Below, in pieces: positions 4,501 to 11,831 of a DNA stretch of 64,000 nt. Source of the stretch: Akkermansia sp. (GTDB lineage: Bacteria > Verrucomicrobiota > Verrucomicrobiia > Verrucomicrobiales > Akkermansiaceae); NCBI GenBank assembly GCA_022787425.1, contig JALFWB010000022.1, forward strand, positions 1 through 64,000, in the 5' to 3' direction. The translations under genes were made by a program, and so were the position numbers. The notes below the pieces were generated by a model. It saw nothing but the letters and a program-made list of their open reading frames with translations, did not search any database and was not told the DNA's origin. How positions within the stretch are numbered: the first letter of the stretch is position 1; each line of letters begins with the position of its first letter.

Positions 4501-5527
4501 CCCTTATCAGGAGGTCGTGGCGAAGAAAAAGACAGACAACGGCCAAAAAACGAGCAGGAGCATCTTTCATCACTTCCAGACTGTAAGTGAGAAGGTCGGT
4601 CGCTACACCTCTTTGATTTATCCCGGTGCTCGTTGGATCCACCGTTCGGGCAAGGGGCTTGATAAATTCGGAATGTCTCAGATTAATGACCCCCACCTTT
4701 CCCTGCTTGAGTTTTTCCCGAAAGCAGGGGAAATTTTTGCCAACGTGGCGATAGCAGACGGCATATCCATTGTGCTGAAGGATATGAAGAAAATCAGATC
4801 GGGATTTAATTACATCTATGTGAAAGATGCAGCTCGCACCCATGTAGAAGCTCGAAATCCCGGAGAAAAATTGTTCGCTCTTAATCCTTTGGATGTTGAA
4901 ATAGCCGATCAGCTTACTAAGATCATAGCAAAATACGGGTGTTTGCATGAGTCTGTCCTGTCGCGCCAGTTGTTTGCTATTGAGAGTGACTTTGTGGAGA
5001 AGAACCCTGAGCTTGTCAGAGAGTATCGGGAGGGTGATCCATTCAACGAGCTGGAGGAGATCAAGCTTTTCACGAACAACAGGAGCGGTAAAGCCGGTCG
5101 GGGAACGTGGTATATAGTCAATCGGGATGTCATCAGTCCCGAAGCCTCAAAGTATATCGGGGAATGGCAGGTTGTCGTTTCGAGTGCGAATGCCGGCGGG
5201 CAGAAGCGAAGTAATCAAATTGCCATTATCGACAATCACAGTGCATTCGGGCGCTCGCGTGTTGCCCTCAAGTCGTTCAAGACGGAACAAGAGGCGCGAA
5301 ACTTCCTCAAATACGCAACCAGTGAAGTGATACGCTACGCATTTCTCCTGACGGATGAGGCTCTCAGCTCGCTGGCTAAAAAAGTGCCTGACCTTAGGGA
5401 TTACACTGATGATAATAAAATAATCGACTACAAGGGAGATGTGGATGCGCAGATATACGCTCTTATGGGGCTGAATGAGGCTGATCGACAGCATATTCGC
5501 AGGACGCTTGCAGAGATGGGAAGATAG
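1592..5527 (+). CDS. Restriction-modification helicase-methyltransferase (type IIG/ISP-like)
   Basis: 1311 residues from a TTG start. Residues 1-110 (KIGETG, ARRRIDQY, VHAVLL, QEWF) resemble the later part of a T5orf172-type GIY-YIG nuclease domain; the usual first strands are missing. Residues 130-560 form a superfamily 2 helicase/translocase with a divergent Walker A (NAKMRFGKT), DEAH at about 264 and SGTPF at about 293. A charged coiled coil spans roughly 655-695. The C-terminal third is an N6-adenine methyltransferase: LEINSKTGLYPLYLA near 851 fits the SAM-binding motif and NAVVGNPPYQEV near 964-975 is the catalytic NPPY. The rest is probably target recognition. It likely acts with the upstream subunit in DNA methylation and cleavage of unmodified DNA. 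Whether the nuclease domain is functional is doubtful. Confidence 0.75.
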   Translation: MKIGETGLGEVGIEDPLTLIPGCHLLNEAARRRIDQYTRTAGVEYELLYTESALFSKDDGVACCRDKDVHAVLLHSGVSRKTFTSKNRGGQEWFVTDLSTVKRAIRAVKEGRGALTAAEVTTEQSPVVFRPEQRAAIDKTRKRFKHGSRMLWNAKMRFGKTLSALELVKEMGVARTLILTHRPVVDKGWFEDFSKIFYDSQAYQYGSKSNGETFENLERAVIEGRAKYVYFASMQDLRGSETVGGKFNKNDSLFKAEWDLLIVDEAHEGTQTELGRAVTDELTKKDTKVLSLSGTPFNLLEGFKEDEIFTWDYVMEQKAKDEWDYEHLGDPNPYSGLPKLHIFTYQLGRIFSQYADETIAFNFREFFRIEGDGIFKHGGDVQSFLNLLTKTDENSLYPFANEYFRSIFRHTLWMVPGVREAKALSALLKKHSVFQHYEIVNVAGEGDEDEECADALSKVESAIGKNPDETYTITLSCGRLTTGVSVKAWTGVLMLSGSYNTAASAYMQTIFRVQTPATINGRVKEHCYVFDFAPDRTLRVLASVPRVSTKVGKTTENQKAALGEFLNFCPVISISGGKMEKMDVTRMLVQLKKAYVERVVQNGFEDNSLYNDELLKLDDIEIRNFENLKGIIGSTPANSNPGNIDINNQGLTDEQYEEKEMLEKKKRRDRLTEEEEKRLAELKKKKKLRDEAISILRGISVRMPLLIYGADIQNEDKELTIENFTSLVDAQSWKEFMHVGVTKELFNRFRRYYDPEIFSAAGKRIRDMVRAADRLNIEERIARIAAIFATFRNPDKETVLTSWRVVNLHMGDTLGGYSFFNEDYTAEVEEPRFIHRGEITDNVFMRNSHLLEINSKTGLYPLYLAYSLYRARLKECAVPPDSLEGHLSIWDKAIAENICIICKTPMAKAITRRTLTGFRQARVNTHYFEDLTNQIIYRQANFVRRVTDGPKTWGIKTSGALSFNAVVGNPPYQEVVAKKKTDNGQKTSRSIFHHFQTVSEKVGRYTSLIYPGARWIHRSGKGLDKFGMSQINDPHLSLLEFFPKAGEIFANVAIADGISIVLKDMKKIRSGFNYIYVKDAARTHVEARNPGEKLFALNPLDVEIADQLTKIIAKYGCLHESVLSRQLFAIESDFVEKNPELVREYREGDPFNELEEIKLFTNNRSGKAGRGTWYIVNRDVISPEASKYIGEWQVVVSSANAGGQKRSNQIAIIDNHSAFGRSRVALKSFKTEQEARNFLKYATSEVIRYAFLLTDEALSSLAKKVPDLRDYTDDNKIIDYKGDVDAQIYALMGLNEADRQHIRRTLAEMGR

Positions 5528-7990: not shown

Positions 7991-8147
7991 CTGAACCGGA
8001 GTGTCGCTCTGATTCGTCCTTTTCGCATAAAATTGTCATACTCTCCCCCAACAAAGTTTGTCGAATTCTCATTTTGGTGTTGACAAGACAGAAAGAAAGT
8101 GTAAAATGACATTTGTAAGGGGCGACTCTCAGCCGGATGACCGTATG
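7991..8147 (+). repeat. Repeat segment 2, copy A (promoter-bearing)
   Basis: About 157 bases matching 8747-8898, from CTGAACCGG through GTTTGTCGAATTCTCATTTT and a shared promoter to AAGGGGCGAC and CCGTATG. It supplies the promoter and leader of the gene at 8206. Confidence 0.8.
8080..8107 (+). promoter_or_regulatory. Cassette promoter in repeat copy A
   Basis: TTGACA (8080-8085), 16-base spacer, TAAAAT (8102-8107). The leader to the start at 8206 is about 90 bases. Confidence 0.6.
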
Positions 8148-8205: not shown

Positions 8206-8628
8206 ATGAATACACATAACATCGCGGTCGTGTTTCTTGTTTTGTTTTGTCAATACGGTGTATGTTTCGCCTCCGGGACTACCGCCGTTGAAGAATCCGG
8301 AAAAGAATTACGAGAAAGTTCGGTAGACATACATATAGGTATGCCCTTAAAAGACGGATTGGCCATATTGAGAATGAGCCCTGATGTTTCATCAATTGAT
8401 TTGCATACAGGAGATATTGCGGTGGAAGATGGTTACGTAATCTTCATCGCGTCATTGAAGAATTCGAATGACGCATTGTTCGTGATATCGAACAGAAAAA
8501 ACGAACAAGAAGAATACAAGATCAGTGAGCTGATGCTATATCGCAATTGGAAAACGGATTGCACAAAACCTAAGAAGAAGAGAAAGGGAGAAATAGAGAG
8601 TGTGTATACATTTATTTTGGGGGTGTAA
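8206..8628 (+). CDS. Small exported protein of unknown function
   Basis: 140 residues with a signal peptide (MNTHNIAVVFLVLF, then a cysteine-containing stretch and CFASG). The mature part is charged, with a lysine-rich patch (KPKKKRKGE) near the end. I do not recognise a family. Its DNA is clearly more AT-rich than the flanking maf and pgm genes, which suggests transfer. It is preceded by its own copy of the promoter-bearing repeat, and its stop codon lies inside the first bases of repeat segment 1 copy B, so it forms one complete cassette. By position it could be an orphan immunity protein left from an earlier Rhs tip, but nothing in the protein shows this. Confidence 0.6.
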   Translation: MNTHNIAVVFLVLFCQYGVCFASGTTAVEESGKELRESSVDIHIGMPLKDGLAILRMSPDVSSIDLHTGDIAVEDGYVIFIASLKNSNDALFVISNRKNEQEEYKISELMLYRNWKTDCTKPKKKRKGEIESVYTFILGV

Positions 8629-8746
8629 GAGCTTGCCTGTAAAATCTGAGCAATTTCGCATGCCGTCTGTGTCGTCCGACCGATGGGCGCTGTTTGAAAT
8701 GAGCGACCGCGCCGGGGTAGGATGCGGCGGCTGATTGGGCGGGGTG
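8619..8746 (+). repeat. Repeat segment 1, copy B
   Basis: Matches 11672-11831: shared blocks GGGGTGTAAGA, CTGTAAAATCTGAGCA, TCGCATGCCG, GGGCGCTGT and GAGCGACCGCGCCGGGGTAG. It separates the first cassette from the Rhs cassette. Confidence 0.85.
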
Positions 8747-8898
8747 CTGAACCGGTGGGTTGCCTTAATTCTCCCTTTTCTCATAAAATTGTCATAATCC
8801 CCAACAAGTTTGTCGAATTCTCATTTTGGTGTTGACAGGACAGAGGAAAGGGGTAAAATGAGACTTGTAAGGGGCGACGCTCAGCCGAATGCCGTATG
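8747..8898 (+). repeat. Repeat segment 2, copy B (promoter-bearing)
   Basis: Second copy of the promoter-bearing segment, about 152 bases, aligned with 7991-8147. It precedes the Rhs tip gene. Similarity ends at CCGTATG, where the cassette-specific leader begins. Confidence 0.8.
8832..8859 (+). promoter_or_regulatory. Cassette promoter in repeat copy B
   Basis: TTGACA (8832-8837), 16-base spacer, TAAAAT (8854-8859), the same layout as copy A, upstream of the Rhs tip gene. Confidence 0.6.
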
Positions 8899-8955
8899 AA
8901 GACATCTTCGACAAGGAAGCGGTAAAGAACGCAGCGGGCTTCACGAACATTCAAC

Positions 8956-10671
8956 ATGGCTTCAAATACATATGATTCCATCCCGGCCGATAGGATCGGG
9001 GTGTTGACTGAGGAGGCGCCCCAGCCGAGCCCGGAGGTGCTCGGGGATGAGAGTGCTGCCTCTTGTGTATGGAGTGATATATTGAGGCCGATTGCTTCGG
9101 ACCCGACGCCTATGGAGTTGCGCTATCTCGGTACTTGGGCCGAGGTGGCGACAGGATTGGGAACCGAGAATCTGGATTGGAATGATACGGACACGGCAGG
9201 CCGTATAACCTCGCTGACCACCTTCTGTGCCGGGACGGAGACCATCAGCCGGTACCCGAGCTACGGTACGGATGCCTACGCCTATGCGTACGATAACATC
9301 GGCAACCGCCTCACGGCACAGGAAGCGGAGGAACAGACGGCCTACACTGCTAACAACCTGAACCAATACACTGCGATTCAGGAGGGGGCGGCAGAGGCTT
9401 TCGCTCCGAGCTACGACGCCGATGGCAATCAGACCTTGGTGAAGACCTCCACGGGCATTTGGTCGGTGACCTACAACGCCGCGAACCGCCCCGTCGTCTT
9501 CGCAAACGAGGCCACAGGCACGGTCGTGGAATGCAGCTACGACTCCTCCGGCCGCCGCGCCACGAAGAAGGTAACCGTAAACGGTACGGTTACCCTGCAT
9601 CAGCGCTACATCTACCGGGGCTACCTGCAGATCGCCTGCTGCGACCTCACCCGCACGGCACACCCCTGCCTCTGGCTCATCACTTGGGACCCGACGCAGC
9701 CGATCGCCACCCGCCCGCTGGCTATTCAGAAGGACGGCACGTGGTACACCTACGGCTGGGATCTCACCAAGAACGTGACGGAGGTATTCACCACCACCGG
9801 CTACATCGGCACGGCGTACACCTACACCCCCTACGGTGAGGTAAGCGCAAGCGGCAACATCACCCAGCCCATCCAATGGAGCAGCGAGTACCACGATGCG
9901 GAGCTCGACCTCGTCTACTACAACTACCGGCACTATAACCCGGCAGATGGAAGATGGACAGGAAGAGATCTTTCTTTCTCAAAGCATAAATATTTGTCTC
10001 CTGCTGTTCTGCAGAGAACAGATTTTCTGGGCTTAATTGAGATGAGTAAGCCCACTTACAAAGAGGTGGATTCACTGATGACTCTCAAAGGGAAAGAAAA
10101 ACTTTTATTCGGAGGAGTTTCAATCAGAGTGGAATTAGAAGCAACTAAGGAAGAGAGAGGGAAAGAATATTGTGTTATTGTAAAAATTGTTAAATTTTGG
10201 ATCCATACAGAAGTTTTGAAGAGAAACTCGTTGCAGTATGATTTCGATGAGAATAAGCCATCTTCTATTGATCAGAAATTTATATGGCGTCTAAGACGCA
10301 CAAGAGATGCATTCGAAATTATGGGGGAGGAAAATTTTTGGATACTATATAATTCTCCCTTCAAACAAGTATCATACGAAGGTGTAAAAGTCCACGAAAA
10401 CGAGCACGCGAGAATAATGTTGAGTTACTCGTCTAAGATTAAAGATCTGTTAGGTAGCAAAACTATTGTTCAATGCTATCAGGATTGTGCCTCAAGAGAT
10501 AGAATATACAAGGGGGTGATGGATAAGAAGTGTCGCTATCCCAGAGGGAGTGAGCTTTCGAAGAGAGTGAGGGACGAGGTGTACGCATTGTTTCCGCCAG
10601 AGAAAACAATGGAGGCACTTGCAACCAGGGCTGAGTACCAGTATTATATCAACACCTTATTGAAAGATTGA
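8956..10671 (+). CDS. Short Rhs/YD-repeat tip protein with HExxH C-terminal domain
   Basis: 571 residues. Roughly residues 80-338 are Rhs core: YDNIGNRLTA, SYDADGNQTLV, YDSSGRRATKK, AYTYTPYGEV, WSSEYHDAELDLVYYNYRHY and the closing DGRWTGRD at about 333-338. Full Rhs proteins exceed 1000 residues and are exported; this one has no signal peptide and only the last part of the barrel. After D338 the sequence changes to an unrelated domain encoded by visibly AT-richer DNA, the usual pattern of a variable toxin tip. That domain contains VHENEHARI with H480-E481-x-x-H484, a zinc metallopeptidase motif, and three cysteines. The next gene starts one base after the stop. It may be an orphan tip that recombines with a full rhs gene elsewhere. 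The peptidase role is inferred from the motif only. Confidence 0.75.
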   Translation: MASNTYDSIPADRIGVLTEEAPQPSPEVLGDESAASCVWSDILRPIASDPTPMELRYLGTWAEVATGLGTENLDWNDTDTAGRITSLTTFCAGTETISRYPSYGTDAYAYAYDNIGNRLTAQEAEEQTAYTANNLNQYTAIQEGAAEAFAPSYDADGNQTLVKTSTGIWSVTYNAANRPVVFANEATGTVVECSYDSSGRRATKKVTVNGTVTLHQRYIYRGYLQIACCDLTRTAHPCLWLITWDPTQPIATRPLAIQKDGTWYTYGWDLTKNVTEVFTTTGYIGTAYTYTPYGEVSASGNITQPIQWSSEYHDAELDLVYYNYRHYNPADGRWTGRDLSFSKHKYLSPAVLQRTDFLGLIEMSKPTYKEVDSLMTLKGKEKLLFGGVSIRVELEATKEERGKEYCVIVKIVKFWIHTEVLKRNSLQYDFDENKPSSIDQKFIWRLRRTRDAFEIMGEENFWILYNSPFKQVSYEGVKVHENEHARIMLSYSSKIKDLLGSKTIVQCYQDCASRDRIYKGVMDKKCRYPRGSELSKRVRDEVYALFPPEKTMEALATRAEYQYYINTLLKD

Positions 10672-10672
10672 G

Positions 10673-11614
10673 ATGAACTTTCGGAGAACACTTGGTATTT
10701 TCCTGATGACATTGGCACTGTTGACCACGATGCCGATGGATGCTCATGCGTACTACAAGAGAAAACCTAACAACGGAGGGCCTAGGACAGAGCTTCCCCT
10801 CAACTATCATCAAGAAGCTATGGATGCCACTCGGGAGCTGCTGAAACATGAGACAGAAGCCTTGGAGGAGGGACGTTTTGATGCAGAGACTTTCAACAGC
10901 ATCCTGTCTGAGGCGACTGCATGTGATAAGCTGACGGAGCTGAGCGGTTCAAACGTCCTCTATGGTACCTTTCTGGGTTCCCCTTCCCAGACTACATTCG
11001 TCTCGGCCGATGGTCGTCACCGATACACGTTCTGCCTGCACAGCAGCTTCTATTTGGAAATAACCGCACGCTCAGGCAAAGAAATTGTTTTCCCTGACAA
11101 AAACGAGGGAATCAATCGGATAATGTTCGAGGAGCTTCGGGACAGCACCGCAGCTCTGCTGAAAGGGCTGCCGAAGCGTCATCAGGAGGATTGTTGGGGT
11201 GCCGCATGCCTTATTGAGGCTAATTTGAAGATGAAACCCGGTATCACACTCGAGAGTCTACTGCATGCCGCCGGGGTGGAATGTGAGGAGGCTGACCGTT
11301 TCCTGAAGGATTGGCGGCAGGGATTGAATCCTACGGCAAAGGGTGACCATTCGATTTTCTCCTTTTTGCTGTTATGGCGCGAGTGCTTAGCCTGTGTCCT
11401 CATTGAATCGCGTCCCGACTTATCTCTGCATCATTTCGCGGAAGCTATGCGGGAGCAGGCGAGTCATGCCGATTTCCCGGAGTGCCTGCGTTTCTATGTC
11501 CCCCAAAATGATGAAGCGGTAGAGGAATGCCTGAACCCGGACCTCTGGGACTATTTTGACATTACAGCGGAGAAAAAGGCTCCGTCCGGGGATGCTCCGC
11601 AGGAAAAGAATTGA
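10673..11614 (+). CDS. Exported partner of the Rhs tip, candidate immunity protein
   Basis: 313 residues with a clear signal peptide (RRTLGIFLMTLALLTT, cleavage likely after MDAHA). The mature protein is mostly helical and acidic with no motif I recognise. It begins one base after the Rhs tip stop codon, so the two are almost certainly co-translated, which is the usual position of an immunity gene. Export would put it in the periplasm, where an incoming or self toxin could be neutralised. Base composition is nearer to the housekeeping genes than that of the toxin tip. It could instead be an effector partner or an unrelated cargo gene. Confidence 0.6.
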   Translation: MNFRRTLGIFLMTLALLTTMPMDAHAYYKRKPNNGGPRTELPLNYHQEAMDATRELLKHETEALEEGRFDAETFNSILSEATACDKLTELSGSNVLYGTFLGSPSQTTFVSADGRHRYTFCLHSSFYLEITARSGKEIVFPDKNEGINRIMFEELRDSTAALLKGLPKRHQEDCWGAACLIEANLKMKPGITLESLLHAAGVECEEADRFLKDWRQGLNPTAKGDHSIFSFLLLWRECLACVLIESRPDLSLHHFAEAMREQASHADFPECLRFYVPQNDEAVEECLNPDLWDYFDITAEKKAPSGDAPQEKN

Positions 11615-11671: not shown

Positions 11672-11831
11672 GGGGTGTAAGATCTTGTCTGTAAAATCTG
11701 AGCACCTCTTTGCTATTCGCATGCCGGCTGTGGCGTCCGACCAACGGGCGCTGTCTGAATTGAGCGACCGCGCCGGGGTAGGATGCGGCGACTGATTGGG
11801 CGGGTTGCTGAAATCCCGCGCATTTTTTGCT
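11672..11831 (+). repeat. Repeat segment 1, copy C
   Basis: Full copy matching 8619-8746, with the terminal part also matching 7929-7973. It abuts the pgm promoter and is the right border of the cassette array. Confidence 0.85.

What the first reader, a model, noticed from the sequence alone, without database searches (positions are those of the whole stretch)
10673..11614. Exported partner encoded one base after the Rhs tip, candidate periplasmic immunity protein
The partner has a signal peptide and nothing recognisable otherwise. Position fits an immunity gene, and export implies the toxin acts in the periplasm or is received there.
Basis: inference. Interest (0 to 1): 0.6.

Follow-up and report, generated by a model that had tools for sequence, protein, structure and literature searches.

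The report
Exported immunity gene beside Rhs toxin
A gut bacterium (an Akkermansia species) carries a short toxin gene followed immediately by a gene for an exported protein that most likely protects the cell envelope from that toxin; comparison across the genus shows that exported partners are the rule there, so these weapons seem to be aimed mainly at the outer layers of rival cells.

Summary
An intact 313-codon gene (10673-11614, +) starts one base after the stop of a 571-aa Rhs protein. It has a clear signal peptide and no match in Pfam, NCBIfam or PDB. The immunity reading is supported by pattern, not by a test of this pair. In Akkermansia, 51 of 61 well-delimited Rhs partners carry an N-terminal signal or anchor, against 33% of genes in this window. 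Most recognisable tips are envelope-type hydrolases (colicin M, Tlde1, NlpC/P60, phospholipases, metallopeptidases). The two Ntox16 tips, which I take to act in the cytoplasm, have partners without a signal peptide. Best explanation: the exported cognate immunity protein of a periplasm-acting, metallopeptidase-like Rhs toxin. Limits: no relatives of tip or partner were found outside this genome, so co-occurrence cannot be surveyed. The Rhs protein is internally deleted by about 1,100 residues, so the locus is a displaced cassette that probably cannot deliver its toxin as it stands. A 73-residue remnant of the partner lies without its toxin in another Rhs array of the same genome. AlphaFold models were unusable.

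The parts
10673..11614 (+). Exported partner P0002, 313 aa, candidate immunity protein; predicted signal peptide residues 1-26, mature protein from 10751
   Evidence: no family match; 73-aa remnant at 93% identity elsewhere in the genome
8956..10671 (+). Shortened Rhs gene, 571 aa: residues 1-83 = N-terminus of a full-length Rhs, residues ~104-338 = C-terminal Rhs core, residues 344-571 = variable tip
   Evidence: (TIGR03696, E 1.5e-10)
9985..10668 (+). Variable tip (candidate toxin domain, 228 aa), GC 0.39 against 0.61 for the core
10393..10407 (+). HENEH = HExxH zincin motif in the tip (Rhs residues 480-484)
   Evidence: found in 0.4% of shuffles of this tip; DUF922 match E 0.081, below cut-off
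8799..8955 (+). Rhs leader with sigma-70-like promoter TTGACA-16-TAAAAT (8832-8859), repeated before other Rhs genes of the genome
8206..8628 (+). P0003, 140 aa with signal-peptide-like N-terminus, directly behind an earlier copy of the Rhs leader: probable solo partner left from an older cassette
   Evidence: no Pfam match
8047..8139 (+). Earlier copy of the Rhs leader (promoter-like site 8080-8107)
8620..8751 (+). Direct repeat behind P0003, paired with 11672-11812 behind P0002
   Evidence: D1 92%, D5 94% identity
11672..11812 (+). Direct repeat behind P0002, paired with 8620-8751; the two bound the shortened-Rhs cassette

Best explanation
[quoted passage not shown] It is exported by Sec and its mature part sits in the periplasm, where it would bind and block a zinc-metallopeptidase-like (HENEH) toxin that attacks envelope targets. 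The pair sits in a displaced, shortened Rhs cassette with its own promoter-like leader and is one of several such cassettes in this Akkermansia genome. The toxin would become deliverable mainly if recombination through the shared leader/N-terminus or the ~700-bp Rhs core moved tip and partner onto a full-length Rhs gene. Meanwhile the exported partner protects against siblings that carry the same tip. Shown here: gene order, signal peptide by inspection, HExxH motif, truncated Rhs, shared core DNA, and the genus-wide pattern of exported partners with envelope-type tips. Inferred: peptidase activity, periplasmic target, binding, protection and recombination.
For: (1) Intact ORF one base behind the tip, with a signal peptide. 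(2) Genus survey: 63 of 76 Akkermansia species have Rhs cores. Of 61 strictly chosen tip-partner pairs, 51 partners have an N-terminal signal or hydrophobic anchor, against 13 of 39 genes of this window (Fisher p 5e-7) and 81 of 174 neighbouring ORFs (p 4e-7). (3) Recognisable tips are mostly Colicin_M, Tlde1, NlpC/P60, phospholipase A2 and C, M35, M76 and YkuD types. By my own reading of the listings, 12 of 13 have an exported or membrane partner, while both Ntox16 tips have partners without one; Fisher p 0.03 on that hand count. (4) HExxH occurs in 9 of 82 tips (0.33 expected from shuffles) and in none of the partners. (5) In other Verrucomicrobiota, HExxH/DUF922-type tips of Rhs proteins (L121, L122, L123, L126) are followed directly by genes with signal-peptide-like N-termini. 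(6) The cassette reading rests on the same N-terminal/core junction in a copy on C25, 69-94% DNA identity of the ~700-bp core with other copies, leader repeats, and a 95%-identical partner remnant in the C5 Rhs array.
Against: No experiment and no usable structure. No relatives of either protein found outside this genome, so cognate pairing cannot be tested by co-occurrence. Partner GC (0.52) differs from tip GC (0.39), unlike most pairs in the survey, so the two may not have arrived together; the large Ank and Sel1 partners of this genome show the same shift. A remnant of the partner lies without the toxin at C5. The tip fails the DUF922 cut-off, and the profile comparison covers only the HExxH helix (probability 2.5%). 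The signal-peptide calls come from a home-made heuristic.
Confidence: 0.6

Rival explanations
1. The partner is a solo or non-cognate envelope protein that came to lie behind this tip by cassette shuffling; it protects against some other toxin or has another function.
For: GC mismatch with the tip (0.52 against 0.39); a remnant of the partner without the tip in the C5 Rhs array; this genome has another apparently solo exported partner behind an Rhs leader (P0003).
Against: One-base spacing and same-strand arrangement, as in most of the surveyed pairs (gaps mostly -10 to +15); the remnant also lies inside an Rhs array, where a cassette with the tip may have been lost.
Confidence: 0.2
2. The whole cassette is a decaying, unexpressed leftover: the tip may be inactive and the partner has no current function.
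For: The Rhs protein lacks about 1,100 residues of the cage; the partner's second copy is reduced to 73 residues; the C25 copy with the same junction is broken.
Against: Both ORFs are intact, the HENEH motif is present, a near-consensus promoter precedes the gene, and codon-position GC is that of a coding frame.
Confidence: 0.13
3. The exported partner is an effector or accessory factor (second toxin, adaptor or surface receptor) rather than an immunity protein.
For: No recognisable immunity family; function untested.
Against: Partners across the genus are mostly unrelated in sequence (70 partner clusters among 82 pairs), as expected of immunity proteins and not of a common accessory factor; Ank and Sel1 proteins, common in immunity roles by prior knowledge, fill the same slot.
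Confidence: 0.07

Closest known systems
VgrG2b C-terminal metallopeptidase and PA0261 (Tpe-Tpi pairs), Pseudomonas aeruginosa (PMC6899460)
   Same: HExxH toxin domain at the C-terminus of a delivery protein, followed directly by a gene with a signal peptide whose product protects in the periplasm
   Different: There the toxin is on a T6SS VgrG spike and was tested; here it is on a shortened Rhs, no sequence relation was found in the searches made, and nothing has been tested
Orphan rhs-CT/rhsI modules, Salmonella LT2 (PMC3967940)
   Same: Displaced Rhs fragment with tip and immunity gene, sharing several hundred base pairs of core with a full-length rhs, allowing recombination that arms the orphan tip
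   Different: Salmonella orphans usually lack start and export signals; the window copy has its own leader, promoter-like site and Rhs N-terminus joined in frame to the core. Evidence for recombination was shown there; here it is inferred
DUF922-type Rhs tips of other Verrucomicrobiota
   Same: Rhs core, HExxH tip, directly followed by a gene with a signal-peptide-like N-terminus
   Different: The window tip is below the DUF922 cut-off and aligns only around HExxH
Polymorphic toxin systems with Tox-MPTase1-5 and signal-peptide immunity such as Imm65 (PMC3482391)
   Same: RHS repeats with C-terminal zincin-like toxin domains; one listed immunity family has a signal peptide and lipobox
   Different: No match of the tip to any Pfam or NCBIfam model; the held text of that paper does not mention Akkermansia

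Membership tests
Rhs polymorphic toxin (tip/immunity pair) | Rhs-associated core domain directly before a variable C-terminal tip | tested here: met
   TIGR03696 E 1.5e-10 at residues 290-342, over cut-off; tip unlike all others in the genus
Rhs polymorphic toxin (tip/immunity pair) | Full-length YD-repeat cage that encloses the tip | tested here: not met
   Residues 1-83 jump to the C-terminal core; about 1,100 residues of the C5 full-length copy are missing. It is a fragment of an Rhs, not a complete one
Rhs polymorphic toxin (tip/immunity pair) | Small gene directly downstream that neutralises the tip | tested here: inconclusive
   Gene present, one base downstream; neutralisation not testable here
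Periplasmic immunity protein | Signal peptide or envelope anchor | tested here: met
   Signal peptide by inspection and heuristic; SignalP not available
Periplasmic immunity protein | Binds and blocks a toxin that is active in the periplasm | not testable with these tools
   Needs expression assays; models unusable
Zincin metallopeptidase / DUF922 | HExxH motif | tested here: met
   HENEH at 10393-10407
Zincin metallopeptidase / DUF922 | Score over the DUF922 family cut-off | tested here: not met
   13.5 bits against 27; profile comparison probability 2.5%
T6SS-delivered Rhs | PAAR domain in the Rhs N-terminus or a PAAR protein in the genome | tested here: not met
   No PAAR match in the own genome
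T6SS-delivered Rhs | T6SS apparatus in the genome | tested here: met
   TssC, ClpV, TssG and VgrG-type genes on C3, completeness not established; Rhs is also in 51 of 63 species without TssC (counted), so a link is not shown

The most novel reading that the evidence does not exclude
Akkermansia Rhs systems form a large, shuffling arsenal aimed mainly at the cell envelope: the tips are mostly envelope hydrolases, the partners are exported almost by rule, and shortened Rhs cassettes with their own promoter act as a store of tips. This pair is an orphan member with a new zincin-like toxin and a new periplasmic immunity protein.
Probability: 0.5. Interest if true: 0.65.

Novelty: new member of a known kind. 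Interest (0 to 1): 0.45.

Why it matters
Rhs toxins are best known (my general knowledge) for tips that act in the cytoplasm. If a whole genus of gut commensals arms Rhs proteins mainly with envelope-directed tips and protects itself with exported partners, then export of the partner becomes a cheap predictor of where an unknown toxin acts, and competition among Akkermansia strains, which are of probiotic interest, becomes testable. The single pair is a small addition; the genus pattern is the more useful result.

Tried and rejected
Separate AlphaFold jobs without an alignment: pLDDT 38 and 37, so no fold search was made. Relatives of tip and partner: none in 84,980 species genomes by pattern scan, viral contigs, plasmids, 76 Akkermansia genomes or 387 genomes drawn from the phylum; some of these collections may leave out the window's own genome. 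Two weak partner matches in G054 and G031 (E 0.003-0.006) did not lie behind Rhs genes that I could recognise in the stretches read and were taken as chance. PDB matches of the partner to Sonic hedgehog (E 0.17) and of the tip to a PCNA entry (a score summed over three repeats, no stretch significant on its own) were rejected as chance. Filing the tip as DUF922 was considered and rejected. Cysteine content as a mark of export: no difference in the expected direction between partners with and without signal peptides. T6SS presence does not track Rhs presence (Fisher p 0.45).

Full report
Observation. The Rhs ORF 8956-10671 ends in TGA at 10669-10671 and the partner ATG lies at 10673, so the spacing is one base. 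The partner is an intact 313-aa frame that random sequence of the same make-up did not produce in 20,000 trials. Its first 26 residues read as a signal peptide ending in AHA (by inspection; SignalP was not available). It has no match in Pfam, NCBIfam or PDB.

Setting. The genome has 2.51 Mb in 56 contigs and belongs to a genus of which 76 species are held. I take the genus to be Akkermansia because one member (G005) has exactly 2,664,102 bases, which I recall as the size of the A. muciniphila type genome; no tool named it. Nine places in the own genome match the Rhs core.

The Rhs protein. Residues 1-83 match the N-terminus of a full-length Rhs on contig C5, then the protein jumps to the C-terminal core (residues 104-338, 60-96% identical to other copies in the genome). 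About 1,100 residues of the C5 copy have no counterpart. The same junction occurs in a broken copy on C25. A leader with a near-consensus promoter (8832-8859) precedes the gene. It recurs at 8047-8139, where it precedes P0003, a 140-aa ORF with a signal-peptide-like N-terminus, and before Rhs copies elsewhere. Direct repeats at 8620-8751 and 11672-11812 bound the cassette. I read this as a displaced cassette, like the orphan rhs modules of Salmonella (PMC3967940), but with its own start and leader. Recombination is inferred.

The partner elsewhere. The only other trace of the partner is a 73-residue stretch at 93% identity (95% in DNA) on C5, upstream of a full-length Rhs gene and next to a transposase-like ORF. 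Neither tip nor partner has a clear relative in other Akkermansia species, in a draw of 387 genomes of the phylum, or by pattern scan of 84,980 species genomes. Co-occurrence therefore cannot be surveyed.

Genus survey. I fetched Rhs ends from many species and paired each tip with the next ORF. Eighty-two pairs were usable. Under a stricter rule, 51 of 61 partners have an N-terminal signal or hydrophobic anchor, against 13 of 39 genes in the window and 81 of 174 neighbouring ORFs. The signal call is my own hydropathy rule, some partners are membrane proteins, and a few related pairs were not removed from these counts. Partners fall into 70 clusters, so this is not one family copied many times.

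What the tips are. Among 70 tips the leading Pfam matches were Colicin_M, Tlde1, phospholipase A2 families and Peptidase_M76, with single matches to M35, NlpC/P60, zinc phospholipase C, YkuD and reprolysin-like families (located). DUF4329 and DUF6402, whose targets I do not know, were also found. The table shows only 25 of 34 families, most tips match nothing, and not every tip was scanned one by one, so absence of other cytoplasm-acting tips is not shown. Two tips left out of that scan are Ntox16, and both have partners without a signal peptide. I regard Ntox16 as nuclease-like from general knowledge; PMC3482391 lists it as an alpha-helical toxin domain found in Verrucomicrobia among others. 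My hand count is 12 of 13 recognisable envelope-type tips with exported or membrane partners against 0 of 2 Ntox16 tips (Fisher p 0.03); numbers are small and the sorting was mine.

The window's tip. It contains HENEH. HExxH occurs in 9 of 82 tips against 0.33 expected from shuffles and in no partner. DUF922, a predicted zincin family (PMC3650047), matches weakly at this place (E 0.081, below cut-off), and a profile comparison supports only the motif helix. Rhs tips of the DUF922 kind in other Verrucomicrobiota are followed by genes with signal-peptide-like starts. So the tip is zincin-like by motif, not a proven member of a family.

Mechanism. The best-supported reading is a periplasm-acting metallopeptidase-like toxin and its exported immunity protein, as in VgrG2b and PA0261, where protection needed the signal peptide (PMC6899460). 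Against it stand the GC mismatch between tip (0.39) and partner (0.52), the solitary remnant, and the lack of any direct test.

Delivery. The own genome has T6SS genes but no PAAR match. Rhs cores occur in most species without TssC. The delivery route is open, and this shortened Rhs probably cannot deliver its tip as it stands.

Verdict. Observation confirmed; interpretation partly supported and sharpened; the pair is a new orphan member of a known kind, and the genus-wide pattern is the more interesting part.

Noticed in passing
8206-8628: P0003, a 140-aa ORF with a signal-peptide-like start, directly behind an earlier copy of the Rhs leader; looks like a solo partner of a lost cassette.
   Followed up: partly
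L030 (G000:C5), 4937-5212: 73-residue remnant of the partner, 93% identical, upstream of a full-length Rhs gene and next to a transposase-like ORF.
   Followed up: yes
L128/L129 (G000:C3), about 11-24 kb; G000:C52:108-116 kb: Type VI secretion genes (TssC, TssG, ClpV, VgrG-type) in an Akkermansia genome; TssC in 13 of 76 species of the genus. Completeness of the cluster was not established.
   Followed up: partly
L079 (G002:C1:147055-163093): Tandem array of several shortened Rhs ends, each with its own tip and downstream ORF.
   Followed up: partly
L098:7018-7959 and L100:6427-7467: Ntox16 tips whose partners lack a signal peptide, the exception that fits the rule.
   Followed up: yes
8799-8891 and copies at C25, C5, C11, C14: A shared leader with TTGACA-16-TARAAT precedes Rhs genes and also, on C14, an ORF that is not an Rhs; possibly a common promoter element.
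   Followed up: partly
L030:5745-8054 and L029:3295-5583: Large exported ankyrin- and Sel1-repeat proteins serve as partners in this genome, with much higher GC than their tips.
   Followed up: partly
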